62,840 nt of DNA, taken from assembly GCA_024696005.1 (NCBI GenBank), contig JAILHF010000036.1, positions 1 through 62,840 on the forward strand, written 5' to 3'. A program made the position numbers and the translations under genes. The notes below the pieces were generated by a model. It saw only the letters and a program-made list of their open reading frames with translations, had not been told where the DNA came from and ran no database searches. This DNA is from Lachnospiraceae bacterium. GTDB taxonomy: Bacteria > Bacillota > Clostridia > Lachnospirales > Lachnospiraceae. Below, piece after piece: positions 30,240 through 62,840 of the stretch. The number at the start of each line of letters is the position of its first letter. Position 1 is the first letter of the stretch.

Positions 30240-30294
30240 GAACGACTGGCTGCAACGCGGGGGCGTGCAGAGTCAGGAAAGGAGAGAGGTGGGC

Positions 30295-33200
30295 ATGGAC
30301 AGCAAACAGATAGCCAAGCAGAAGGCAATGAATGAGCGGATCAATACGCTCAGACAGGATGAGGCGGAATTCAGTTTTTCCGCCCATCAGTATGCAAGGG
30401 AACAGAAGCAGGAAGCGCAACAGAGTGTGCAGAAGGCAAAGCAGGACAATGTTGCGATCGACCTGGCACTGGAACAGGCCGAAGCCTTCCGGCTGAACCT
30501 GAGCGAGAAAGCCCGTCTGGAATCCATCCGGGGGCGGAACCTGTCCCATATCCTTCTCAACAACAACCGGTTCAAAAAAGACAGTCCCGAAATGGAGGCT
30601 GTCAAGAATGCAGTGGCCGAGGTGGAAATGGTCATCGATGCTCCCATCGTGACGGATTATTCCATGACCGGCCCCGGGGAGGAACAGTACGGACGCGCCA
30701 TTTCCCTGGGCAGGGCAGAGGGCCTTTACCAGGAGGCCATTGTTGCCTGCCGGAATTATCTGTTAAAAAAATCGCCGATCACCTCCAAGGGTATCGAGCG
30801 GTATAACCAGGTCCGTCAGCAGATGAACTTCATGATGAAAGAAGCCGCGAACCTGGCCATGGCCAAGCAGCTCATGTTCCGCGGGCTGATCGGGAAAAAC
30901 GCCAAGACCGTGCGGGAGCTGCTGGTAGAGCAGAAATCCAGCATGAACAAGGTGGGCATCGTCGGGAAAAAGGAAAAGGAGCGCTACGAGAAGGCAAATG
31001 ACCGCTTGAAGACCTTTAACGATGTCACGAGACAGACCATGATCACCAGCGACGATGAGGAGAACTTCTCTCCGGAGATGAACATCTATTTCGAAGCGCT
31101 TACCCAGAAGAAGCTTCCGAACGCTCTGATGGACATGCTGGGCGAGAAAAAAGAAGACAGGCAAAAGGCGGTCACGATACTCAAAAACATGCACAAACGT
31201 CTGCGTGAGCTGAAGGAGGACCGTTTTACCAGCGTGAGCTTTCTGGCCGGGGATACCGTTATCCATATCTTCCAGAAAGAGGACAACACGCTGGATTTCG
31301 GCTACACCGTGCGGACGGTCGATAAAACCGTTGATCCGCCCCAGGAGCGCATCCAATTCAAGCAGAGGAACCTGGAGATCAGCGCTAGGGAGCTGGCGGC
31401 GCGGATGAGCGAGAACCTGATCGAAAACGAAGAGGTCTTCGGGAAGGAATACAGCGCCGAGATCGTGGATAAGCTCGAGCTGCTGGACGACAAGATGTCC
31501 ACGCTGGAAAAGAGCCGTGCAACCAACGCGGCCACGGCATTTCTGTGCACCCGCTTAAAGCTTGCCAAGAGCGATCTGGCCAACATCCCGCAGGATGAGC
31601 GCGTGAAGCTCGCCAAAGCCCTGAATGTGGGCTTTGTGACCGAGGAGTATGCGAAGCAGTACCTGAAGGATTATGAGCTTGGCAACAAGTATGAGAAGCA
31701 GGCCAAAAAGAAGAACAAACTGGATAAGCTGAATACGAAGAAGGACGAACTGGACGCGTTTGCCCGTAGTCAGGGTTATGCCGACATGGAGGCCATGATC
31801 CGGGAGCAGCAGGAAAAGGATGAACTCCGGAGACTGACGGAGGAAGAAAACGCGAAGCTTCTGCACGAGAAGGAAGAACAGGAGCGGATCAGGCAGGAAA
31901 TCGAAAACGCGGAGCTTCGCAGGGAACAGGAAAAGGAGGCAAAGCTTCAGGCCGATCAGGAGAAGCGGAAACAGGAAGCGGCAGAGGAAGAAAAGAAGAG
32001 GGCGGAGGCCAAGAAAAAGAGAAAGCAGGAGAAGGCAAAGGAAGAGGCTGAGAAGGAAAAGAAAGAGATCAAGAAAGCCGGGAAAGAGATCGCCCGTGAC
32101 TTTATTGATCAGCTTTTCGCAGAGATAGAAGAACAGGAAGAAACGGAAAAGGAACTGAAGGAAGCCGGTCTGGACGGCTTGCTCGATGACCTTTTTGCCG
32201 AGGCGCAGGAGAAGGTCGCAAAAAAGCAGGCTGATGAGAAGCGGGAGAAAAAACTTAAAAAGCAGGCTGCCAAAGAGGACAGAAGAAAGAAACGGGAAAG
32301 ACGGGCCGAGATCGAAGAACTGGAACGAAAGGCAGAGGAATCCCTCGCGAAGAAGGAAGTGGAAAAGCGGGAGATGGATCATTACGAGATGGAGAATCTC
32401 GGAGTGTCGGAGCTTGTTGACGATCTTCTGGGGGATGTGAATGAGGAGATAAAGAAGGATAAGGAGGCAGCTGATCTTGAGAGCGTCCCCGAGCATCTGC
32501 GGGGGCTGTATCAGTATGAAAGGAATCAGCTTCTGCTTGCCATGGCCGGGAAGAGTGCGGGGCAGGAGGAGCTGCGCCGGCAGCAGAAGGAACTGCAGGA
32601 TAAGCTGGATGCTTCTGCCGCAAAGGAAAGGGAGGATCTGCAAAGGATAAGGGAGGAAAACGAGACCGCCCTGAAGGTGCGTACCGAAAATGCGCAGCAG
32701 CGCGCTTATGAGATCGATGCAGAGTACCAGGAGCAGATGGAGATCCTGGAGGAGCGCCTCGAGGATACCTTCAAGACGTCCCGGGAACGTGATGAAGACG
32801 GTCGGATGACGCATGCGGCCGTTGTGGCTGAGGAGCAGATCCGGAAAGAGACCGCAAAGCTTGAGGAGCAGCGTAACGCGAAGCTGGCGCTGCTGGATGA
32901 GGAACTGGAAGACTATGTCCGCATGCAGGAGAAGCGGGTCGAAAAGTGGCAGAAGCGGGTTGAGCGCAAGCAGCAGGCCATGAGCGAAGAGATCGCGAAG
33001 CTGACCATTGCCATCGAACAGAGCGGAAAATACGGAAACTGCAGCGAAGAGGAGCTGGAAGCGGAGTGGGAGAAATTTGACCAATGGCGGGAATACCTGA
33101 TCGGTACGGGCAAGTACACAGGCATGATCCGTCTGAGTTTTGACCAGTGGAAGGAGAAGCTGCAGGCGGACACCCGGAAGTTTCAGGAAGAAACCGAGGA

Positions 33201-36200
33201 GCGGATCCGCAGGGAAGAGGAACGCAAACAAAAGATGGAGGAGTACCGGGATGTTACGGAAGACATCCGGGAACTGGAGGAAGGCGAGCTTTCCACGCTT
33301 ACGGATGAGCGTGTCAACGGCGCCGAGACCCTGGAACTCTTAAAGAACCGGAAGAAGTGCGAACAGAACGGCACGTTAAAGACGATGGTCGTCTATTCCG
33401 AGGATCTGGAGCTCGAGGAGGAAGCGAAGGAAGAAGAGAGACGGAAGAGACTGATCAAGGAGTCGGATCGTGATCTTCCGGAGGCAACCCGGCGCGTTGA
33501 GGAAAATGAGGAAAGGCTGGCGGAATGCAAGAAGAAGCAGGAGGCCGCCCAGAAGAAGCTGAAGGAGCTGGAGGCGGAGAAAACGAAGATCGCGGGCCTG
33601 CCGGCGGATTCGGAGGAAAACGCGGAACGGCTCGAACAGCTGACCGGCATGGATCAGGACGAGCTCATAGACGATCTCATGAACGATGTGGTGCGTCAGG
33701 AGGGTGGCGAGATGGAGCTGATCCTCAAGCACCAGGCGATCCGCCAGGGATCCGTTTCGGAGATCCAAAAGGAATACGACGCGCAGGTCGCCCTTCTGGA
33801 CGAGCGTGTCGCCTCCAAAAAGCTTGGCGCCAAAGCCGCTGAGGAAAGGAAAAAGAAGCTTAAAGCGGAGCTGCAGGAGCGGGTGCGTGTCCTGGAGGAG
33901 CCGGAATTTCTGCTGGCTGAGGAGCTGGAAAGCACGCTGGGAGACAAATATCTGGCGTCAGAGGAGTATGCCGAAAGGCTTCAGGCGTTCCGAAAGAAGC
34001 ATGAGGAAGAAAAAGCGAGTGCCTTAAAAGTCTACAGGGATGAATACGAACGTGTTCTGCAGAATCTGAAGACTGTCTTTGATCCCAAGGCGGAGCAGAA
34101 GGCTGCAGAGAAATATGACCGAGAGACGAAGAAGCTGGAAGCGAAGTACAAGAAGGCGCAGATCGAAAACGAAGATCTTCTGCGTGCCGAGTATGTGGAA
34201 AAGCTGAAAGAGATCAACGGGAAAGCCGTTGAAAAGAAAACAGCGAAAAAGAAGGCAGCAGCCGAGCGGGAAGAGAAATTGAGCAGGATCGAGATCGAGA
34301 TCCTGCAGACCATGGATGAAGTCGAAAAGCTGGGGAAGGAGCGTCAGGATCTTACCCGTGCCGGAGCGAGCCTGCGTACCGTGCGCGCCCAGCTGGAGAG
34401 CACCAAGCAGGAATCGGAGGAAAAGCTCAAGAAGATCGAACAGGACCGCAAAAACCGGGTGACGCTCAAGAAACTGGAGGCGGAGCGGAAACAGCAGGCC
34501 ATACAGGAAGGAACGGCCTGGACAGAGGATGAAGAAGCCCTGAAGGACATGCTGGCGGAATTCATCTATGCCCGGGATACCTGGGAAATGGACGAAGAGA
34601 AGAAGCCGGGACTCCGTCTTTGGAATGTTCTGCAGAAAAACCAGAAGCTTCTTACGATGCTGATCGCCAATCCCCAGGGGTTCAAGCAGGTTACGGACGG
34701 CTTTATCCAAAAGCTCCCTGTGGAATTCATGGGAATGAAGCCCGAAGAGCTGAGCAGCATCATAGACAATTCCGCCAAGATCGTTCAGGACATGGCACGG
34801 GCGCAGATCAAGGAAATGCGCGAGCAGGTCGCGAAACGCAAGAAGGAAAGGGAAAAGCGTGTTGCGGATAAAACGGCCGAAGTGGCTGAGCGCAAGAAAG
34901 CCCGCGCAGAGGCGAAAGCCAAACCGAAGCCGGAGGAAGTGAAGAAGGCGCAGGAAGAGGCGAAGAAGCAGCTGGCAGAGTATGAGCAGTATCTGAAGGA
35001 GCATCGGGATTTCAGCCCCCTGGAAGAGCTGGAGCGGCTCGAGGAGCTTAAGAAGCAGGCCGGGATCGGGCAGACCGTGCCCGTTAAGCAGGAGGCAAAG
35101 AAAGAACAGGCGTCAGGCGGCGGTTTCTTTGGCTTCTTCTCCAACATGTTCAAGACGGAGACGGAAGAAGAACGGCAGGAGCGCGAGGAGAACGAGGCCT
35201 GGGAGAAGGAGATCGAAGAGGCCGGTCAGGACGAGTATCTGGAGGATGACAAAAAGCTGGAGTGGATGCCGGACTACATGCTGCTTTGTGCCGCCGTTAA
35301 CAAGACGCTGAACGAGACCCCGCTTGAGGAGAACACCTATCTTCAGAAGCTCGCGGAGCAGGAAGCCGAGCTGGAAGAGCAGATGCACAAACAGATCCGC
35401 GGCCTGAAGAAGATCATGAAGCAGTATGTTCAGGATAATTTCAGCGGAGAAGGCAAGGAAGAGGAGATCGGGCAGGTCGAGTATTACCGCGAGAAGGGGA
35501 TCAGCAAAGAGGAAAGGGACAGGCGGATCAAAGCCGGAAACGATGAGCTGGATAAGATGATCAACAATGCCCTGGTCGGAGAAGAAGGACAGGGACAGTT
35601 TTTGCGAAACATCCTTTCGGATTATCTGAGCGGCTGCAACAATCTGGACCTGCGCAGCATGCTGTCTTCCGCGATCCGGAATGCAAAGCCGGCCAAGCTT
35701 TCCAAAGACGCGACGGATGAGGAGAAGCTGAAGGCCGTCTCCAGTTACGTGGGCGGTGCACTGAAGGGTGCGGGACCTTTGCTGCAGAAGACGCTTCAGG
35801 GTGTGCCGGAGAGCATGATCCCCAAGGGGCTGGAGGAGGCCATGGAAGACATGAAATCCAATCTGGCACCTATCCCGAAGGAGATCGTGGAGGCCGAGCT
35901 TTTGGGGATCGTGCAGCGCTCCGACGGTCAGATCAGACGCATTGCCATTACCAAATCCCTGGGGGCCGCGTCGGTCGGACAGGCGTTCCTTTGCAGGGTT
36001 TACATGAAGGACAGCGAAAACTACGGACGTCCCGTGGTGATCAAGCTGCTCCGTCCCGATGTGCGCAACCGCATGATGCGGGAAGAAAAGATCCTGAACA
36101 AATGTGCTGCCGATGCGGGCGAGGGTATGCGCAAGACCTTTGAAGGCCAGATGGAGCGTATCCGTGAGGAACTGGATCTGACCATTGAGGCAAAGAACTG

Positions 36201-38268
36201 TGAACTGGGCATGATCTATGATGATGACCAGAACGACGTGAAAGCCATGAAAGTGAGCCGCGAGGCCAATCCCACCACCAATTCCCTGATGGTGGACCGG
36301 GCCGACGGGGACACCGTGGTTGGTGTGCTGAAGTCCTCCAGACAATTGCGTGACGTGCTGCTCAACAGCTTCTATACAAAAAACAAGGACGGAAAGATCG
36401 AGATGGAGGGCTCGAATCCCAAGCTGAGCATCCCTCTGGGATCTGACGTGCAGGAGATCAAGGCGCAGCTTTCCAGGCATCTGGACACGCTTCAGAAACA
36501 GCAGGGCATGCTCTGTGAAATGGCAAGAAAGTGGGTTGATGAGGCAATCTTCGGAAAAGGCTTCTACCATGGCGACCTGCATGCCGGAAATATCATGATG
36601 AGCGACCGCAAGCTGACCATCATCGATTTCGGCAATGCCACCATGCTGGATGAATTTCAGCGCACGCAGGTGACCAAGATGCTGATGGCGGCGGCCGGCG
36701 GCAGCGGCAGCGGCTTCATGGACGGCTTTGAGGCACTGCTCAGCGATTCATCGAAGGAATTGCTGAAGACCAAGCGTGCGGAACTGGAAGCGGTCTTTCA
36801 GGAAGTCCTGCATCTGGGCGATTTTAATTCCAGCGCCCAGCGCATTGCTGCGGTACTCGTACGTGCCCAGAAGCTGGGCTTTGAGCTGCCTCCCGCGATC
36901 TACGGTTTCCAGCAGTGCCAGCTGCGCGTGCAGAATACCATCGAGGATTTCAATAAAGAGATCACGGCGGTACAGGATGCACTGAAAACGCTGGAAGATG
37001 TGCAGAAGAACACCCTCTTTGACGTGAAGAAAAAGCACGACAAGATGCTCCACAGCGGCAGTGATTCCGCGCAGTCCCTGCGCATCGCACTGCTTCCGAA
37101 TGATGAGGAACAGCTGCTTAAGCTGATCCGGGACAAGAGTGAGGGCAGCAGGCTCACGCTGGATAAGGCATTCGGTAACCAGATCGAATTCATCAGCCTC
37201 CGTCAGGAACAGACAACGGATGAAGCCCTGGAAGAGGCGCTGTTGAATTATTACGGCGGAGAAGGCGGTGAATACCGCAGCATATGCTGGGATTTCATTT
37301 CGCGGGAAAAGTGGACCAAGGTCTTTACGGATAAAAACATTCCGATCAAGACCGGCAACTACGGCATCCGGGAAAAGAATCCGGCCTACGAAAAAGCTGT
37401 TGCAAAGCTTTCGGAAAAGGACCGGAAGGAAATCGTGGCAGGGATCCGGGAACTGTATGAAGCCGTTAACGTTAAAGCTGCGCTGAAAGAGCTTCACAAG
37501 GCGCAGGACGCGGGGGCCGGGGAAGATGTGCTGGCTCCGTTGGAACAGAAGGTGCTGGAGAAGATCCGGAATGCCAAGGAAAGCTACATGAGCCAACGGG
37601 ATGCGGCTTATGAAAATGATGTCCTTCTGAATTCCGAGCTTTCGGATATTGAAGATGACTGGGATGAGCTGGACGAAGAGGAACAGAAAGACGAGAAGAT
37701 CATCAAGCAGTTTGAGGACAGGCGTAAGAAGGCACAGGATAAGAAAAAAGAGGAGATAGCCAAGAGAAAGAAGGAATATGATCCGGATGAACAGCTCAAG
37801 GACGTGAAGGAGTCGCTGAAGGATGCCAAGAAACTGGATCAGGCCGCAAATGAGCTGAAAGCCCTGTTTGAAGAGCCGGCTTTCGGTGCGGAGCTCCGGG
37901 CTGCTTTTAACGCATACCGTGAAGCGGTGAAGAACAATGCGCCCGAGGATCAGAAAGAAGAGCTGCTGAACAGGTTCCTGGATTGCTACAAGCTTCCTCT
38001 CCTGAAGACCATCGTCATAGGCAACGAGAACAGCAGCAGAGAGTATGCCATCGATTACAGCAAGCCGAAGGACTTTGTCGGCGTGATGGGGAACGTGATC
38101 GGTGACAAGTGGAAGACCGCCCTGAAGCGTATGAATATCTTTAAGGCGATCAAATACGGTTGGCGCATCCGTGAGGACGAGGCGGGGAAACTGCTGGGGA
38201 TCAAGGATGTATACAAAGATATCATGGACATCATTTTTGACCGCGAACAGGAACAGGAACAGAAGTAA
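30295..38268 (+). CDS. Giant coiled-coil protein with embedded ABC1/UbiB-type kinase domain (2657 aa)
   Basis: I chose ATG 30295 because GGAGAGAGG precedes it; the GTG at 30265 has no such site. Residues 1-about 490 are a mixed helical region. Residues of about 490-1640 are extremely E/K/R/Q-rich, predicted coiled coil. From about 1820 an ABC1/AarF/UbiB-like domain begins: Ala-rich loop LGAASVGQA (about 1889-1898), VVIKLLRP with Lys1917, ELDLTIEAKN (Glu1965), catalytic loop HGDLHAGN (D2094, N2099) and IDFGNAT (D2111). The N-terminal KxGQ motif of true UbiB proteins is changed (KGAGP). Residues of about 2200-2657 are again helical. No signal peptide or clear membrane helix is seen. ATP binding is inferred; the substrate is unknown. 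Confidence 0.9.
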   Translation: MDSKQIAKQKAMNERINTLRQDEAEFSFSAHQYAREQKQEAQQSVQKAKQDNVAIDLALEQAEAFRLNLSEKARLESIRGRNLSHILLNNNRFKKDSPEMEAVKNAVAEVEMVIDAPIVTDYSMTGPGEEQYGRAISLGRAEGLYQEAIVACRNYLLKKSPITSKGIERYNQVRQQMNFMMKEAANLAMAKQLMFRGLIGKNAKTVRELLVEQKSSMNKVGIVGKKEKERYEKANDRLKTFNDVTRQTMITSDDEENFSPEMNIYFEALTQKKLPNALMDMLGEKKEDRQKAVTILKNMHKRLRELKEDRFTSVSFLAGDTVIHIFQKEDNTLDFGYTVRTVDKTVDPPQERIQFKQRNLEISARELAARMSENLIENEEVFGKEYSAEIVDKLELLDDKMSTLEKSRATNAATAFLCTRLKLAKSDLANIPQDERVKLAKALNVGFVTEEYAKQYLKDYELGNKYEKQAKKKNKLDKLNTKKDELDAFARSQGYADMEAMIREQQEKDELRRLTEEENAKLLHEKEEQERIRQEIENAELRREQEKEAKLQADQEKRKQEAAEEEKKRAEAKKKRKQEKAKEEAEKEKKEIKKAGKEIARDFIDQLFAEIEEQEETEKELKEAGLDGLLDDLFAEAQEKVAKKQADEKREKKLKKQAAKEDRRKKRERRAEIEELERKAEESLAKKEVEKREMDHYEMENLGVSELVDDLLGDVNEEIKKDKEAADLESVPEHLRGLYQYERNQLLLAMAGKSAGQEELRRQQKELQDKLDASAAKEREDLQRIREENETALKVRTENAQQRAYEIDAEYQEQMEILEERLEDTFKTSRERDEDGRMTHAAVVAEEQIRKETAKLEEQRNAKLALLDEELEDYVRMQEKRVEKWQKRVERKQQAMSEEIAKLTIAIEQSGKYGNCSEEELEAEWEKFDQWREYLIGTGKYTGMIRLSFDQWKEKLQADTRKFQEETEERIRREEERKQKMEEYRDVTEDIRELEEGELSTLTDERVNGAETLELLKNRKKCEQNGTLKTMVVYSEDLELEEEAKEEERRKRLIKESDRDLPEATRRVEENEERLAECKKKQEAAQKKLKELEAEKTKIAGLPADSEENAERLEQLTGMDQDELIDDLMNDVVRQEGGEMELILKHQAIRQGSVSEIQKEYDAQVALLDERVASKKLGAKAAEERKKKLKAELQERVRVLEEPEFLLAEELESTLGDKYLASEEYAERLQAFRKKHEEEKASALKVYRDEYERVLQNLKTVFDPKAEQKAAEKYDRETKKLEAKYKKAQIENEDLLRAEYVEKLKEINGKAVEKKTAKKKAAAEREEKLSRIEIEILQTMDEVEKLGKERQDLTRAGASLRTVRAQLESTKQESEEKLKKIEQDRKNRVTLKKLEAERKQQAIQEGTAWTEDEEALKDMLAEFIYARDTWEMDEEKKPGLRLWNVLQKNQKLLTMLIANPQGFKQVTDGFIQKLPVEFMGMKPEELSSIIDNSAKIVQDMARAQIKEMREQVAKRKKEREKRVADKTAEVAERKKARAEAKAKPKPEEVKKAQEEAKKQLAEYEQYLKEHRDFSPLEELERLEELKKQAGIGQTVPVKQEAKKEQASGGGFFGFFSNMFKTETEEERQEREENEAWEKEIEEAGQDEYLEDDKKLEWMPDYMLLCAAVNKTLNETPLEENTYLQKLAEQEAELEEQMHKQIRGLKKIMKQYVQDNFSGEGKEEEIGQVEYYREKGISKEERDRRIKAGNDELDKMINNALVGEEGQGQFLRNILSDYLSGCNNLDLRSMLSSAIRNAKPAKLSKDATDEEKLKAVSSYVGGALKGAGPLLQKTLQGVPESMIPKGLEEAMEDMKSNLAPIPKEIVEAELLGIVQRSDGQIRRIAITKSLGAASVGQAFLCRVYMKDSENYGRPVVIKLLRPDVRNRMMREEKILNKCAADAGEGMRKTFEGQMERIREELDLTIEAKNCELGMIYDDDQNDVKAMKVSREANPTTNSLMVDRADGDTVVGVLKSSRQLRDVLLNSFYTKNKDGKIEMEGSNPKLSIPLGSDVQEIKAQLSRHLDTLQKQQGMLCEMARKWVDEAIFGKGFYHGDLHAGNIMMSDRKLTIIDFGNATMLDEFQRTQVTKMLMAAAGGSGSGFMDGFEALLSDSSKELLKTKRAELEAVFQEVLHLGDFNSSAQRIAAVLVRAQKLGFELPPAIYGFQQCQLRVQNTIEDFNKEITAVQDALKTLEDVQKNTLFDVKKKHDKMLHSGSDSAQSLRIALLPNDEEQLLKLIRDKSEGSRLTLDKAFGNQIEFISLRQEQTTDEALEEALLNYYGGEGGEYRSICWDFISREKWTKVFTDKNIPIKTGNYGIREKNPAYEKAVAKLSEKDRKEIVAGIRELYEAVNVKAALKELHKAQDAGAGEDVLAPLEQKVLEKIRNAKESYMSQRDAAYENDVLLNSELSDIEDDWDELDEEEQKDEKIIKQFEDRRKKAQDKKKEEIAKRKKEYDPDEQLKDVKESLKDAKKLDQAANELKALFEEPAFGAELRAAFNAYREAVKNNAPEDQKEELLNRFLDCYKLPLLKTIVIGNENSSREYAIDYSKPKDFVGVMGNVIGDKWKTALKRMNIFKAIKYGWRIREDEAGKLLGIKDVYKDIMDIIFDREQEQEQK

Positions 38269-38335: not shown

Positions 38336-39268
38336 ATGAAGATAGCTGTATTAAGGGAAGAATACCTGGATTACTTCGCCCATATGGACCCCCTGTTTTT
38401 TTTGGAGCGTGCGGCGTTCCCGGATCGTGTGTGCTTTGCGGCGGTGCAGGAAGCCGAGGACGGGGATGAGCCGGCCGGACTGATGCTCTGCCGGGTGATG
38501 GAGGAGTGCCTGTGTGTGGAGTGGATCTGCGTGCGGGATGACCTGCGCTGGCAGCAGGTGGGCGGACGCCTGATGGAGCATGCCTACCGGATCGCAGCTG
38601 CGGCCGGGAACAAAAAGCTGCTGCTTTACCTGAACGAGGAGTACGGACGGAAGGATATCTGTCCGCAGGAAACGGCATTTCTGGAAGAGTACGATTTTGT
38701 GAAGGAAAAGGATCTGCCCGGAGAATGGATCACGGATGTGGGAAGCATGCTCGCGCAGCCTTTTGCGGAGGACGGGGAAGACGTGCTTCCGGAAACGGAG
38801 CCTTTCGGAAGCCTCAGGTCCGGAGAACGGACGGAACTGCTTCAGAAGCTGGCCGGGGATGAGAAAGCCGCACTGCTTTATTCGCCGGAAGGAGCGGAGA
38901 GGCTGATCGACGGCACGCTCAGCCGCCTGATCCGCCGGGGCGGAAAGATCAGCGGGGTGCTTCTGGTACAGGAATCGGGAGAAAGCCTGTATGTGACCGG
39001 GGCTCTGGCAGGAAACAGTACCGAGCTGCAGGCCCTGGCTTTCGGCGCGCTGGCGGAGGCGCGGAAACGATACGGGACGGAAAAGGGGATCCGGATCCTG
39101 AAGGACAGTGAGCGGTATACCGCCATGCTGGGCAGCCTGATCCCGGAGGAAGCGGTGAAATGCTCTCTCTATGCCTCGGATGTGGAGAAACATTATAAAG
39201 GACAGGAAGGTTTTACGCCCATGGACAGCGTAACGGACATTCTGAGCGTCCTGGTGGGGGCGAAGTAA
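38336..39268 (+). CDS. GNAT-family N-acetyltransferase-like protein (310 aa)
   Basis: Residues of about 25-120 resemble a GNAT fold: a beta strand ECLCVEWICVRDD, then RWQQVGGRLMEHAYRIAAAAG as the acetyl-CoA-binding helix region, where the classic QxxGxG/A is only partly kept (QQVGGR). Residues of about 165-310 look like a second, more divergent GNAT-like half. Such tandem GNAT proteins may acylate amino groups of sugars or proteins. Its stop lies 2 bases before the membrane dehydratase gene. It is therefore probably part of the amino-sugar operon, although PglD-type acetyltransferases have a different fold. Confidence 0.75.
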   Translation: MKIAVLREEYLDYFAHMDPLFFLERAAFPDRVCFAAVQEAEDGDEPAGLMLCRVMEECLCVEWICVRDDLRWQQVGGRLMEHAYRIAAAAGNKKLLLYLNEEYGRKDICPQETAFLEEYDFVKEKDLPGEWITDVGSMLAQPFAEDGEDVLPETEPFGSLRSGERTELLQKLAGDEKAALLYSPEGAERLIDGTLSRLIRRGGKISGVLLVQESGESLYVTGALAGNSTELQALAFGALAEARKRYGTEKGIRILKDSERYTAMLGSLIPEEAVKCSLYASDVEKHYKGQEGFTPMDSVTDILSVLVGAK

Positions 39269-44933: not shown

Positions 44934-47900
44934 ATGAAGAGACAAAAAAGATTGTGCGGCATTCTGAGCTGGCTGCTGACACTGGCACTGGTCCTTGGGG
45001 ACTTTGCACCGGTGTTTACGGTGCGGGCAGAGGATGCGGAGGGCGGCATTGCCGTCTGGAGCGAAGAGCAGGGTGAAGACGGCAGTGTTTCGGGCCCGGA
45101 GACCGCTCAGACGGTGTCCGGGACGGATGCGGTTTCGGATGATGAGCTGACGGAGACGGTATCGGATCCCGATGCGGCCGAGCCGGAAGGAGAGGAAGCC
45201 GACGAAGGAGCGGAAGGCGAAGCGGAGATACCCGATCCGGATGAGGCGGCCCTGACGGTACGGATCCGCGTAAAGTACGGACAGACCGAAGCCAGAAAAG
45301 CGGCTGTTTCGGTCAACGATCTGCGTGCCTCAAAAAGTGTGGCCAAGCTTGCGTATGACTATGACCTGGAAAAGAAGGCCATGCAGCGTGCGGCCGAAGT
45401 GGCGTTCTATTTCAGCGAGACGCGGCCGAACGGGGAGAAGTATACGGATATTCTGAAGAAGGAGATCGTGGAAAAGGGCGTTCAGGAACTGCGTTTCCGG
45501 GGAAATGACAACGCTGCCGCCGCTGTGGGAAAATGGATGGAAGGCAGCTCCGATCAGCTGATGAAGGATGGCTTCAAATACGTGGCGATCGGTCATGCGG
45601 CCCTGGACGGCGAGCATTACTGGGTCATCGAATACACAAATGTGGAAATGAAGGCTTCGGATGCACCCAAGGCCGATGACAGCGAAACGGATGTGGAAAT
45701 GAACGTGCAGGAGGGGCTGATCACCGGACTGGAGGTGACGCCTTCCGTAGCGGATAACAGCAAGCTGAACATAGAATACAACAAGGAGACGGCGCTTCCG
45801 GTCTTCTCCTGCCGCCTGGCCGTCAACGGCCACGAGCCCGCGGGAAAAACGGTGCCGGTAAAAGGCGAAAAGGTTGAATGGAAGCTGGCGGACAAGGACT
45901 TTGCAAAGATCAAGGACGGAAAGATCACCGGCCTGGTAGAGCGAGGAGACAGCAAAGTATCGGCGACCGTAAGCCTCTGCGGCCGCAGCAAGGACTTCAA
46001 CTATAAGCTCCATATCGTGGTACATCCTTCTTCCGTGGTATTTTCGGAAAAAGAGAAGTCGCTGGAAATGGACGAGGAGTACCAGCTCGTCTGGACCGTC
46101 CTGCCGGACGATGCGGATGACAAGAGTGTTACCTTCAAGCTGGGCAAGGGAACGGAAAATCTTGCCGTGAGCAAAAAGGGACTGGTCACGGCCATGGGCA
46201 ACGGCACGGGCGAAGTGATCGTGGAGACGGTCGACGGGAAGAAGACCGACGTGTGCCGGATCAGCGTGAGCACGAACCAGTCGGTGGCCATGCCTGTTCT
46301 GGATCCTTCTACCGGCATCATCCGGGAGGGAGAGAGCTTCCGTCTGAGCAGCGATACCCCTCTGGCAACGATACGCTATACCCTGGACGGAAGTGAGCCT
46401 TCCGCGGTATCGGGAAATGTTTACAGCGGACCCTTTACGATCACGGAAGACTGCATGCTGAAGGCCGTTGCCTGCAAGGAGCTGTATTTCGGAAAAGAAG
46501 GCGAGGAGATCACAAAGAGCTTTCTCACGAGCGCCAAGCTGGAGCAGAAGCTTTATGTCCTGGGCGATAACTGGGGCGATGTGGAAGAGGATGACCGTGA
46601 GCAGTGGGGAACATCGGATAAGGTCCCCGCAGGTCTGTGGGTGGCTGCGGCTTCGATTCCGGAGCTTCCCTATACCGGGCAGGCCTATAAGCCCGATCTT
46701 TTCCGGGTATACGACCATACCGCTCTTCTGCGTCCCGGCACGGATTATACCATCACCTACAAGAACAACGTGAATGCCGGCAAGGCCATCGCGGTCTTTA
46801 AGTTCAAGGGGAACATCCAGGGCAAGCTGAACCGCGAGTTTACCATCACCCCGGCCGCCATCGGGGGCGCGGAAGTGAGCGCATCCGACGGGATCTGGAC
46901 CGGAAGCGTGATCGTGCCGAAGGTAACGGTGAAATGGAACGGAAAGATCCTGAAGGAAAACGTGGATTATGCCGTAAGCTGTGACAGACAGCTGAAGGAC
47001 GAGGGTGACTACGAGCTTACGATCACGGGCAAGGGAAATCTGAACGGGAGCGTTACCTGTGCTTACAGCATCATAAAGCAGGCAAGTGTTCTGGACCTTT
47101 CCGCGGCGAAGATCGGAAAGATCCCCGATCAGAAATGGATCGCGGAAGGCTATGTGAGCGGCAACCAGCTGAAGGACAAGAAGGGGAACGCCTTTGTTCT
47201 TTCCGTAAAGATCGGAAAGCAGGAAGTTCCCGCAGGCGATTACGAGACCGAGATCCTTCACGGGAACGCGGTCGGCACGGCGACCCTCCGGATCAAAGGA
47301 AACGGGACAAAGACCGCAGGCTATAAGGATATCAGCTTCAAGATCAAGGGAACGGATATCAGCAAGGCTGTTACGGTGGCAAAGATTGCGGACCAGACCT
47401 ACACGGGTACTCCGCTCACGCCGGAAGTGACGGTCACCGCCAAGAGCGGCTATCTGATCACGGAAGCGTGCTACAACTGTGTATATTCCAAGAATGTGAA
47501 AGCCGGAACCGCGAAAGTAACCATTTACGGCGTGGAGCAGCAGGGCTTCAGCGGAAAGATCAGCAAGAGCTTCCGCATCGTAAAGGCAAACCTGAACGAT
47601 CTGCAGGCCGCAGGGCGTCTGGAGATCGATTACGACAAAGAGACGGTCTATGTCAAGGGCGGCGAGAAGCCCCTGGTGCTGGTAAGCTACAAGGCCGGCG
47701 AGGATCTGGTGGTACTGGAGGAAGGGAAGGATTTCACCCTGAAATGCGGGAATAACAAGAATGTGGCAGCAGCGACGGACAAGAACGCACCCTGGTTCCA
47801 GGTCGTCGGAAAGGGAAGCTATTCCGGAAAGAGCAACAAGATCCTCTATTCCATCACGGCCAAAAGCCTGGGGCATGTGACGGCAGTGGTTCCCGATGTG

Positions 47901-48479
47901 GAGTACAAGGCCGGCAAGCCGACCGTGAAGTGCATGGGCAAGGTGACGGTCACGGATGAGAACGGAAAGAAGCTGAAGATGGGGACGGATCTGGATACGG
48001 AGCGCAGCATACTCCGTTATCTGGAGAATACCTATGTAAAGCGCGGCACCGTGGAAAAATGCTATGTAAAGGCCGGTGACCCGGTGGAAAAGAATGACAT
48101 TGCCCCCGTGGGAACGGCTCTGACGCAGGTGTTTTACTATAAAGAGGGCGGAAATTACTGCGGTACCCTGCGGATCAACCTCAAGGTGGTGGACACGGGC
48201 CGGGAGCTTTCCGCGGCGAAGGCAAAGATCGCGAACCAGTTCTATACGGGAGAGGCGGTCACGCTGACGAAGGATCAGATCAATCCCACCATCCGCGGGA
48301 CGGCGATCCCGAAGGACTGCTATGATATCGTAGCCTATGAGAAGAATACCAAAATCGGAACCGCGAAGGTGACCATCGAAGGCCGGAACGGCTACGGCGG
48401 AAGGGCAAGCTTCAGCTTCAAGATCGTGAAGCAGCCTGCCGACAGATGGGTTGCGGGATCCGGAAAGCCGCAGAAGTAA
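44934..48479 (+). CDS. Secreted CAP-domain protein with Ig-like and repeated beta domains (1181 aa)
   Basis: The signal peptide is residues 1-32 (KRQKR, a hydrophobic core, then VRA before EDAE). An acidic low-complexity linker follows to about 105. A CAP/SCP domain covers about 105-240 with LAYDYDLEKKAMQRAAEVAF, FSETRPNG, and HYWVIEYTN. Then come Big_2-like Ig domains (about 255-450), a chitobiase C-terminal-like domain (about 452-530, IRYTLDGSEPS), and six or so repeats containing IPELPYTGQAYKP-type and VDYAVS-type motifs. No LPXTG or transmembrane anchor is seen at the C-terminus, so it is probably released or held by wall polymers. AAGGAGG precedes the ATG. Confidence 0.92.
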   Translation: MKRQKRLCGILSWLLTLALVLGDFAPVFTVRAEDAEGGIAVWSEEQGEDGSVSGPETAQTVSGTDAVSDDELTETVSDPDAAEPEGEEADEGAEGEAEIPDPDEAALTVRIRVKYGQTEARKAAVSVNDLRASKSVAKLAYDYDLEKKAMQRAAEVAFYFSETRPNGEKYTDILKKEIVEKGVQELRFRGNDNAAAAVGKWMEGSSDQLMKDGFKYVAIGHAALDGEHYWVIEYTNVEMKASDAPKADDSETDVEMNVQEGLITGLEVTPSVADNSKLNIEYNKETALPVFSCRLAVNGHEPAGKTVPVKGEKVEWKLADKDFAKIKDGKITGLVERGDSKVSATVSLCGRSKDFNYKLHIVVHPSSVVFSEKEKSLEMDEEYQLVWTVLPDDADDKSVTFKLGKGTENLAVSKKGLVTAMGNGTGEVIVETVDGKKTDVCRISVSTNQSVAMPVLDPSTGIIREGESFRLSSDTPLATIRYTLDGSEPSAVSGNVYSGPFTITEDCMLKAVACKELYFGKEGEEITKSFLTSAKLEQKLYVLGDNWGDVEEDDREQWGTSDKVPAGLWVAAASIPELPYTGQAYKPDLFRVYDHTALLRPGTDYTITYKNNVNAGKAIAVFKFKGNIQGKLNREFTITPAAIGGAEVSASDGIWTGSVIVPKVTVKWNGKILKENVDYAVSCDRQLKDEGDYELTITGKGNLNGSVTCAYSIIKQASVLDLSAAKIGKIPDQKWIAEGYVSGNQLKDKKGNAFVLSVKIGKQEVPAGDYETEILHGNAVGTATLRIKGNGTKTAGYKDISFKIKGTDISKAVTVAKIADQTYTGTPLTPEVTVTAKSGYLITEACYNCVYSKNVKAGTAKVTIYGVEQQGFSGKISKSFRIVKANLNDLQAAGRLEIDYDKETVYVKGGEKPLVLVSYKAGEDLVVLEEGKDFTLKCGNNKNVAAATDKNAPWFQVVGKGSYSGKSNKILYSITAKSLGHVTAVVPDVEYKAGKPTVKCMGKVTVTDENGKKLKMGTDLDTERSILRYLENTYVKRGTVEKCYVKAGDPVEKNDIAPVGTALTQVFYYKEGGNYCGTLRINLKVVDTGRELSAAKAKIANQFYTGEAVTLTKDQINPTIRGTAIPKDCYDIVAYEKNTKIGTAKVTIEGRNGYGGRASFSFKIVKQPADRWVAGSGKPQK

Positions 48480-59835: not shown

Positions 59836-62800
59836 ATGAAACAAAATCGCATCACAAAAAGGATCATCCCGTGGATCATGACACTGGCCCTGATGGCAGG
59901 TGAGCTGCAGCTGCCGCTGCCTGCTTCGGTGGCTAGGGCGGAGGAGCCGGAACCGGCAGCGGAAAAGACCATCACCGGCCTGGGAACGGGAGCGATCACA
60001 AATCCGGTTGTACCGTATAGTGCTGGTAATTATTGGAGCGGGAGCAACGTATACTATGGGAAATATGACGGAACCCCCACGAAGTATCGTGTGCTGGATA
60101 AGGCTTCCGGTGATTTCGGAGTGAATGGCGGAAGCCTTCTCTTGGACTGTGACAGTATACTTTATGAGGCGGTGTTTGACCAACGCGGCTCTGAATCTTC
60201 TGAACCTATTGAATGGGCAAAAAGCAAAGTAAGAACAGGCCTTAACGGGGATAGTTTCCTTGATTTTGCAGGAAATTTCACAGATGCTGAAAAAAAAGCC
60301 ATAGCAGAGAGCAGTAAGGTAACAGCAGTAGATGGTGATGGTAACGGAGGGACTTCTTTGACACCTCAAGCTGATGATTATGCAGAATTTGATTTTATAA
60401 GGATATCCCAGGAAAAAATCTTTCTTCTTGACCAAAAAGAAGTAACAAGACCTTCTTATGGTTATTCCAATACTCCATTTAGAGCAAATAACAGGCTAAA
60501 GACTGGAAGAGATGGAGAGAAAAAAGCCTGGTGGTTGCGGAATCACAATAATAGTGACAGTTCACATAGCAAAGCCGGCGTAGTGAATAGAGATGTAGGA
60601 CAAATCGAATCACGCTCGGCTATAACAATATTTGATGTTGGCGTCAGTCCCGCATTTAATGTCAGCCTTAATTCAGTCCTTTTCTCAACTTTAGTCTCCG
60701 GAACCGCGGGTCAACCCGGTGCGGAATACAAGCTGACGCTGAAGGATGAAAACATGGGGATCGCTGTAGCGGAAGGCGAAAGCGTTGTACAGTCGGATAC
60801 GACCGTCACGATCCCCTATACCATCACCAATGATACGGACAGTGGCATTACAGCTGATCAGGTTTCAGTGCTGATAACGGATAAGGCTTATACCGAGAGT
60901 GATGCTTCTGTTCTGCAATATACTGCCCTGACGGTAGAAGAGGGCACTGTGGGAAGCAGCGGGACGGGTACTTTTATGCTGGATACAAGTAAGGTTACGG
61001 GAACATGGGGGACGGACTACCATGTCTATCTCCTGGCGGAAGAGGTGAATCTCGGTGATGATATCAAACTGACGGACTACGCGAGCAGCCCCACGGAGCT
61101 TACCGATGTAAGCAGTCTGGTTGTTTCGCAGGACAGCGTATCCACATACGGCCAGTTTGAAAACCTGTCCGTGATCAAAGAAGGCGAGAGCACGGGCGAT
61201 GAAATCCGGGTCGGCGACAGGGTTAAATATTCCTTTGACTATCAGCCGCCTGAGGGAGGTGTGGTATCAAGCTATACCGTTTTCTACAACAAAGGTGACA
61301 TGAAGTCCACCATGGTCAAGGAATATGGTTTTAATGAGACAGTCATCATTGACGGTAATCTGTTATTCACACCTTTTGATGCAAATTATTACGGTGACTG
61401 GAAGGTCTGGAGCATAGTGGTAAACTTTGCCCAATCTCCTGAAAGCATAGGTGAAGGTAACAGTATCACATTTTATGATAAAGCGTACCTGAATGGTTCA
61501 AAGAGGTATATGAACCCGGGAGCGGATTATTGTGTGGCCGATCTTTCGGAGCTGTCCTTCACTGTCGAAAAAACAGAGCAGGCAGAAGCTGATCATCAGG
61601 GCCCCGATATCGGCACGGGCGGGATCAGCATTGATAAATCGGCCGTAGATATAGCCGACGATGCGGTTGTAAATATCAGCGTGCCCATAACAGATGACAG
61701 TGGCATAGCCGAATGGCATATTGCCGTAACGGATGGAAAACATATCAGGATAAGACATGAGTTTCCTGATACTTATGACCCGTTCAGCGAGGCGTATGAT
61801 GAAGGAAGTCATACCGGAATCACAAGGGCCTATTCAAAAAGTCTTGGAGACTATCAGATACTGTATATTCTGGCATATGACCGCGCAGGAAATGAGACTG
61901 CGGTTTACAACAGTGCATTTTCTGCCAGTGAGAATTTTGTGTATAGTGATTATTCTCAGCAGCAGATCGTTGAAAGCTATTTAGAGAACCGTACCAAAGG
62001 TACTACGGTGGATCTTAGTACTAAGGCTTACTCTGTTGTCGATGGAAGGGATACCGGTGTGGCACCTGTATTCCGTTTGGATGATTTTTCGAATAACGGC
62101 GAACGTTTTGCTTTTGGTGAGGATGTAATTTTGCGTACGCCGATCGAAGGAAGCCTCAGTAAATTTGTGATCGGGTTTGGGATTGAACGCCAGGAAGGGG
62201 GGACGTACGTTCTTGAGCACAATGGCCAATATGAACCCATGCTGTTCCAGGCTACCCGTTTCGGATCATGTTTTATAAAATACATTTCGGCAACGGATAC
62301 GGCAGGACGGAAATCCGCATTGTATAATTCCGCTGAATGTGATAATGCGGCTGCAGCGGGGATAGACGAGAGTAAATACGACAGTGTGTCAGACGCTGAT
62401 CTGTCTTCCATGAACTGGGTAGTGGGGCTGAAAGATGAGGCGACCGGCATCCTGGCATCAAATGAAGAATTTGAGGCAGGAAGTACGTCGATGAACGTGG
62501 CGGAACAGGAAATGTCTTCCTCCAGTGAATCATATAGAAATATAACCGATACATCCGTTCACGGATATGACGAATCGTTCGGGACGGATTATACAGACAG
62601 ATTCTTCTGGAACATAGAACTGGAGAACTTCGATCATCAGAACAACAATAAGATAAAGGTATGGGTTCCTGTCCCAGGCATGAAAAACGGCAGCAGAGTG
62701 CTCATCAGGCATCTTAAGCATAAAGAGAATGCAAATGATGCCAATGATGTTGAATTCTTTAATCCTGTAGTAGAAGACGGACTTGCCTACTTTGAAGTGG

Positions 62801-62840
62801 ATGGGTTCTCCCCCATTCTGGTTTCCTATAATGATGAGGG
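59836..62840 (+). CDS. Large secreted surface protein with DUF6273-like domain (3' end beyond window; 1001+ codons)
   Basis: Open from ATG 59836 (GAAGGGAG upstream) to the right edge without a stop. The signal peptide is about residues 1-36 (KQNRITKR, a hydrophobic stretch, ASVARA before EEPE). Residues of about 55-300 resemble DUF6273, with KAWWLRN near 232-238 and a FDVGVSPAF segment. Then come Ig-like segments, for example EYKLTLKDEN, ITDDSGIAEWHIAV and AYDRAGNETAVYN (the last typical of Ig_3-like surface repeats). The DNA from about 60180 on is clearly richer in A+T than the neighbours, suggesting foreign origin or relaxed codon choice. Surface location is inferred. Confidence 0.85.
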   Translation, partial: MKQNRITKRIIPWIMTLALMAGELQLPLPASVARAEEPEPAAEKTITGLGTGAITNPVVPYSAGNYWSGSNVYYGKYDGTPTKYRVLDKASGDFGVNGGSLLLDCDSILYEAVFDQRGSESSEPIEWAKSKVRTGLNGDSFLDFAGNFTDAEKKAIAESSKVTAVDGDGNGGTSLTPQADDYAEFDFIRISQEKIFLLDQKEVTRPSYGYSNTPFRANNRLKTGRDGEKKAWWLRNHNNSDSSHSKAGVVNRDVGQIESRSAITIFDVGVSPAFNVSLNSVLFSTLVSGTAGQPGAEYKLTLKDENMGIAVAEGESVVQSDTTVTIPYTITNDTDSGITADQVSVLITDKAYTESDASVLQYTALTVEEGTVGSSGTGTFMLDTSKVTGTWGTDYHVYLLAEEVNLGDDIKLTDYASSPTELTDVSSLVVSQDSVSTYGQFENLSVIKEGESTGDEIRVGDRVKYSFDYQPPEGGVVSSYTVFYNKGDMKSTMVKEYGFNETVIIDGNLLFTPFDANYYGDWKVWSIVVNFAQSPESIGEGNSITFYDKAYLNGSKRYMNPGADYCVADLSELSFTVEKTEQAEADHQGPDIGTGGISIDKSAVDIADDAVVNISVPITDDSGIAEWHIAVTDGKHIRIRHEFPDTYDPFSEAYDEGSHTGITRAYSKSLGDYQILYILAYDRAGNETAVYNSAFSASENFVYSDYSQQQIVESYLENRTKGTTVDLSTKAYSVVDGRDTGVAPVFRLDDFSNNGERFAFGEDVILRTPIEGSLSKFVIGFGIERQEGGTYVLEHNGQYEPMLFQATRFGSCFIKYISATDTAGRKSALYNSAECDNAAAAGIDESKYDSVSDADLSSMNWVVGLKDEATGILASNEEFEAGSTSMNVAEQEMSSSSESYRNITDTSVHGYDESFGTDYTDRFFWNIELENFDHQNNNKIKVWVPVPGMKNGSRVLIRHLKHKENANDANDVEFFNPVVEDGLAYFEVDGFSPILVSYNDE

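What the first reader, a model, noticed from the sequence alone, without database searches (positions are those of the whole stretch)
30295..38268. A 2657-residue coiled-coil protein carrying a complete-looking ABC1/UbiB-type kinase
Known ABC1/AarF/UbiB proteins are about 450-650 residues long, mostly membrane-linked, and act in quinone or lipid metabolism. Here the same catalytic set (Lys1917, Glu1965, D2094/N2099 in HGDLHAGN, D2111 in IDFG, Ala-rich loop LGAASVGQ) is embedded near the C-terminus of a giant SMC-like, E/K-rich protein. The KxGQ motif that inhibits protein kinase activity in true UbiB enzymes is altered (KGAGP). This could be a new type of ATP-driven scaffold or kinase, and it is the best candidate for an undescribed system in this window.
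Basis: partly seen in the sequence, partly recalled or inferred. Interest (0 to 1): 0.88.

Follow-up and report, generated by a model that had tools for sequence, protein, structure and literature searches.

The report
Giant kinase tied to injection machine
A bacterium related to rumen species carries a giant protein with an unusual kinase, and the evidence suggests it is one of a family of effectors that go with a phage-tail-like injection machine, a link I did not find described.

The parts
30295..38268 (+). giant protein, 2657 aa, no membrane segment by hydropathy
30280..30289 (+). ribosome-binding-like sequence before ATG 30295
   Evidence: read from sequence
30424..31686 (+). N-terminal domain (NTD) linked to the CIS; found by iterated profile in 76 of 91 unique ABC1 giants; confident model without a significant PDB match
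30490..30960 (+). portable helical module inside the NTD; also in 28 frames without an ABC1 domain (8 of them cut by contig ends, some perhaps pieces of ABC1 giants), one with a calpain domain
31792..35394 (+). E/K-rich, mostly variable linker (coiled coil inferred from composition); a stretch near residues 1400-1500 is shared by up to 41 of 91 giants
35467..37164 (+). kinase region used for the model (pLDDT 90.2); best PDB matches are ABC1 proteins
35695..37095 (+). ABC1 domain (PF03109)
35764..35799 (+). KGAGPLLQKTLQ: GAGP aligns with LGP and KTLQ with KxGQ of UbiB; Gly lost, Lys and Gln kept
35959..35982 (+). Ala-rich loop LGAASVGQ
36568..36591 (+). catalytic HGDLHAGN
36622..36636 (+). metal-binding IDFGN (role recalled from kinase knowledge)
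38336..39268 (+). GNAT-like partner (Acetyltransf_1, E 1.6e-6); its family matches in 12 of 12 sheath-positive and 1 of 23 sheath-negative genomes of the genus

Best explanation
The protein is most likely an effector of the cell's contractile injection system. Shown by sequence: an N-terminal domain with a portable helical module, a long charged linker, an intact ABC1-type kinase domain, and a GNAT-like partner gene directly downstream. Shown by genome comparison: domain, partner and giants travel with one clade of CIS. Inferred: the module, with the GNAT-like protein as modifier or loading partner, couples the giant to the CIS; on firing it reaches a neighbouring cell, where the ABC1 domain uses ATP to phosphorylate (or otherwise act on) a protein, lipid or small molecule. 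The eukaryote-style calpain domain in sister proteins and the rumen source of many relatives make rumen protozoa or fungi a plausible but untested target.
For: Co-occurrence in the genus (35 genomes): sheath in 12; ABC1 giants in 7, all sheath-positive; NTD in 11, all sheath-positive, 0 of 23 sheath-negative (Fisher 2.9e-8); partner in 12 of 12 against 1 of 23 (1.6e-8). Order sample of 392: NTD in 7 and ABC1 giants in 3, all among the 31 sheath-positive. Sheath in 40 of 46 genomes reached through ABC1 giants. Linkage: G029 contig C50 has four ABC1 giants on one strand beside the CIS genes; an NTD match in the window's own genome lies on the CIS contig, 30 kb from the sheath, and in G240 it is 16 kb away. 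The CIS looks genuine: sheath, gp19 tube, CIS_tube, gp25, baseplate J, DUF4280, Pvc16_N. Polymorphism: the same module plus a calpain domain (E 5.7e-13) beside a partner gene, L290; beside other partner genes Ntox11 (E 5.9e-44) and a second calpain (E 7.2e-13). Kinase fold and catalytic residues intact. No membrane segment in 90 of 91 giants.
Against: No experiment; loading and secretion are unseen. In the window the gene lies on a contig where no CIS gene was recognised, next to sugar and polysaccharide genes. Six of the 46 genomes with giants showed no sheath. Fisher values ignore shared ancestry. 24 of the 31 sheath-positive genomes of the order sample had no NTD match, so it serves at most one CIS clade; in the order searches only the best few candidates per genome were scored, so misses are possible. 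One sheath-negative genome, G024, has a marginal partner match (6.5e-11). The calpain and Ntox11 proteins were found through the partner gene; one of the two calpain proteins has the module, the other and the Ntox11 protein do not. 14 of the 18 ABC1 copies of the genus are on contigs other than the sheath's. 2657 aa is very large for a CIS cargo (recalled). No DUF4157, a known mark of CIS toxins, in the Pfam scans.
Confidence: 0.62

Rival explanations
1. The giants are accessory parts of the CIS (assembly platform, anchor, tape-measure-like or firing control), not cargo; the kinase domain regulates the machine.
For: Tight co-occurrence with the CIS and the array beside the CIS genes in G029 fit this as well.
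Against: Copy number varies from 0 to 7 per sheath-positive genome of the genus, 14 of 18 copies are not on the sheath's contig, frames not cut by contig ends run from 755 to 2740 aa, the shortest perhaps split genes, and partner-linked sisters carry calpain and Ntox11 domains, which is effector-like.
Confidence: 0.17
2. The giants are intracellular kinase scaffolds unrelated to the CIS; the link is shared ancestry of one set of rumen lineages.
For: Fisher values are not corrected for phylogeny; 6 of 46 genomes with giants have no sheath match; the window copy is not beside the CIS.
Against: 0 of 23 sheath-negative genomes of the same genus have the NTD; the link holds in other genera and in one genome of another family, G356; physical proximity in G029, the window's genome and G240.
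Confidence: 0.14
3. A conventional ABC1/UbiB enzyme of quinone or lipid metabolism with extra domains.
For: Same fold and catalytic set.
Against: UbiB model TIGR01982 scores 69 bits against a cut-off of 487.55; Gly of KxGQ lost in 51 of 51; no membrane segment; in the genus found only in sheath-positive genomes.
Confidence: 0.03

Closest known systems
ABC1/UbiB/COQ8 atypical kinases (PF03109; COQ8A, MSMEG_1954, Rv3197)
   Different: Part of a 2657-aa protein without membrane segments; KxGQ reads KxLQ; HGDLHAGN instead of the HADPHPGN or HADMHPGN of the six yardsticks; TIGR01982 cut-off not reached.
Extracellular contractile injection systems and their associated toxins (Geller et al. 2021, PMC8213781; five passages seen)
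   Same: A CIS with accessory proteins, some with toxin domains; Firmicutes are among the hosts in that paper (Paenibacillus, Ruminiclostridium).
   Different: The passages seen name no kinase cargo; 'acetyltransferase', 'rumen' and 'Butyrivibrio' do not occur in its main text. Here many candidate effectors lie away from the CIS and are paired with a GNAT-like gene.
Legionella effector kinases (pan-kinome, PMC9758233; three passages seen)
   Same: Kinase-like folds used as injected effectors, including phosphatidylinositol kinases in its reference list.
   Different: Different delivery machine. One passage lists the ABC1 protein lpg2905 as a non-effector; another says that some Legionella kinase-like proteins cluster with ABC1, and I did not see whether any of these is an effector.
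Polymorphic toxins with Ntox domains and type VI effectors with dedicated adaptors (recalled)
   Same: Shared N-terminal part or partner with exchangeable enzymatic ends.
   Different: A GNAT-like partner and this helical module are not among the adaptors I recall; I did not look systematically for immunity genes.

Membership tests
ABC1 domain superfamily (PF03109) | profile score over the curated cut-off | tested here: met
   66.8 bits against 22.9 on residues 1801-2267
ABC1 domain superfamily (PF03109) | ABC1-type fold | tested here: met
   the 11 best PDB rows in both comparisons are ABC1 proteins
ABC1 domain superfamily (PF03109) | Ala-rich loop and catalytic Lys/Glu/Asp/Asn/Asp | tested here: met
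   catalytic residues invariant in 51 of 51 aligned; A168 of the loop in 51 of 51
UbiB family proper (TIGR01982) | equivalog cut-off of 487.55 bits | tested here: not met
   69 bits
UbiB family proper (TIGR01982) | KxGQ motif | tested here: not met
   Lys and Gln kept, Gly absent in 51 of 51 aligned
UbiB family proper (TIGR01982) | role in quinone synthesis | not testable with these tools
   needs an assay; no quinone gene was recognised among the window genes scanned
CIS effector | occurs with a CIS | tested here: met
CIS effector | encoded in or beside the CIS locus | tested here: inconclusive
   yes in G029; the window copy is on a separate contig, with an NTD match in the same genome 30 kb from the sheath
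CIS effector | shares a targeting part with known toxin or enzyme ends | tested here: met
   module plus calpain in L290; Ntox11 beside a partner gene in L289 but without the module
CIS effector | loaded into particles and delivered | not testable with these tools
   needs particle proteomics and a sheath mutant

The most novel reading that the evidence does not exclude
Rumen Lachnospiraceae run an injection system with a large, exchangeable arsenal (1-16 partner-gene matches per sheath-positive genome of the genus) of very large effectors, sorted by a portable helical module and a GNAT-fold partner, in which an ABC1-family kinase has been turned into an injected enzyme, possibly aimed at rumen protozoa or fungi.
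Probability: 0.33. Interest if true: 0.9.

Novelty: new variant of a known kind. Interest (0 to 1): 0.78.

Why it matters
If true it would be the first ABC1-type kinase used as an injected effector that I know of (recalled; the Legionella survey leaves room for others), a large effector repertoire for a CIS in anaerobic gut Firmicutes, and a new marker (GNAT-like partner plus module) for finding CIS effectors by sequence. Butyrivibrio sp. FCS014, whose record is not marked as a MAG, has both a giant and the sheath, so it may be testable in culture.

Full report

THE KxGQ POINT. Profile-profile alignment with E. coli UbiB and five UbiB/AarF-type proteins (probability 99.7, E 1.3e-25) puts KxGQ on KTLQ, residues 1832-1835. 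Lys and Gln are kept in 51 of 51; the Gly is L in 35, M in 11, I in 3, V in 1, F in 1. So the motif is altered, but by loss of its Gly.

WHO HAS IT. In the genus 7 of 35 genomes encode ABC1 giants, 18 copies in all, 1 to 7 each (also 17). A scan of GTDB genomes confirmed 211 relatives, of which 78 loci were kept; 67 of the 78 are titled Lachnospiraceae or Butyrivibrio, and the titles that name a source name mostly ruminants. They hold 84 ABC1 frames; the 69 not cut by a contig end have a median of 1792 aa (755-2740). Two loci come from MAGs labelled Sutterella and Succinivibrio.

THE LINK TO A CONTRACTILE INJECTION SYSTEM. In G029 contig C50 has four ABC1 frames in a row, on the same strand as and beside genes of a phage-tail-like machine; between them lies one 612-aa frame with the NTD only, perhaps a split gene. 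The sheath of that machine is in 12 of 35 genomes of the genus, among them all 7 with giants. The N-terminal domain, used alone as a profile, is found in 11 of 35, all sheath-positive; G001 is the only sheath-positive genome without it, and the 23 sheath-negative genomes have none. In a sample of 392 genomes of the order the sheath is in 31 and the domain in 7, all among the 31; ABC1 giants are in 3 of 392, again all sheath-positive. In these order searches only the best few candidates of each genome were scored. Of 46 genomes reached through ABC1 loci, 40 have the sheath; the six misses include the two MAGs labelled Sutterella and Succinivibrio. Genes of the window's own CIS (contig C27) match gp25, baseplate J, CIS_tube, gp19, DUF4280 and Pvc16_N and Phage_sheath_1. 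Fisher values ignore kinship and are only a guide.

THE PARTNER. Directly downstream (38336-39268) lies a GNAT-like protein. Clustering of the neighbours in the 78 loci and the window gave a family of 70 members in 49 loci, all 70 on the giant's strand, median 4 bases from it. In a wider count 64 of 93 unique ABC1 giants have one within 2.5 kb on the same strand, 47 of them within 200 bases downstream; many loci are cut by contig ends. As a profile it matches in 12 of 12 sheath-positive genomes, 1-16 places each, and in 1 of 23 sheath-negative ones, once at E 6.5e-11. The acetyl-CoA motif [RQ]xxGx[GA] was seen in 15 of 25 aligned partners, so some may be enzymes and others not.

POLYMORPHISM. 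A helical module inside the N-terminal domain is present in 69 of 93 ABC1 giants and in 28 other frames, at varying positions; 8 of the 28 are cut by contig ends and some may be pieces of ABC1 giants. One of the 28, L290:1446-5135 (1229 aa, G007), has a calpain domain (E 5.7e-13) with the stretch QGHLGDCYFLATL and a partner gene beside it. Two partner-linked proteins on the contig that holds the CIS sheath of G007 have Ntox11 (E 5.9e-44) and calpain (E 7.2e-13), but not the module. The other 7 of the 10 proteins of that last Pfam scan had no match. L103:2215-6408 has a third, sub-threshold calpain match (21.8 against 23.8 bits). A 2677-aa protein in G029 that resembles stretches of four ABC1 giants has a weak PI3/PI4-kinase match below the Pfam cut-off (21.3 against 27.1 bits). 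Of 108 frames of 500 aa or more within 300 bases of a partner gene, 57 have the module and 46 the ABC1 domain; this set was gathered around giants and partners, may include spurious frames, and is not a random sample.

MECHANISM. Steps shown: intact kinase fold and residues; module; partner; co-occurrence. Steps inferred: loading by module and partner, injection, phosphotransfer in a target cell, eukaryotic target. I put 0.62 on effector, 0.17 on accessory part of the machine, 0.14 on no functional link, 0.03 on a conventional UbiB enzyme.

NOVELTY. The ABC1 domain and the CIS are known; their combination, the giant size, the module and the GNAT-like partner are in no paper that my ten searches listed. 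I call it a new variant of a known kind.

Noticed in passing
L289:7266-9014 (-), G007: 582-aa protein with Ntox11 (PF15521, E 5.9e-44) beside a GNAT-like partner gene, on the contig that also holds the CIS sheath.
   Followed up: partly
L217:3259-11292 (-), G029: 2677-aa protein resembling parts of four ABC1 giants, with a weak PI3/PI4-kinase-like match (E 2.9e-4, below the Pfam cut-off).
   Followed up: partly
L208:2599-12687 and L209:2627-11620: Giant proteins of 3362 and 2997 aa without any Pfam match, next to GNAT-like partners; the own genome has a frame with a similar N-terminus at L282:2-5878.
   Followed up: partly
L278:11318-11944, L282:8682-9314, L285:8064-8699, L293:7872-8543, L209:15033-15638: A recurring small-protein set (about 210 aa and about 140 aa, and STAS-like 100-aa proteins in other loci) near partner genes; by eye it looks like a regulatory module.
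   Followed up: no
L167 and L168: ABC1 giants in MAGs labelled Sutterella and Succinivibrio, with no sheath match in those MAGs: mis-binned contigs or transfer.
   Followed up: no
L037:5810-10437 (-), G029: A 612-aa frame with the NTD runs by a 4-base overlap into a 930-aa frame with the ABC1 domain: a split gene or two coupled genes.
   Followed up: no
window 44934-48479: 1181-aa protein with CAP, Big_2 and chitobiase-like domains, probably a surface protein.
   Followed up: no
window 59836-62838: Large frame with a signal-peptide-like start that runs off the contig end.
   Followed up: no
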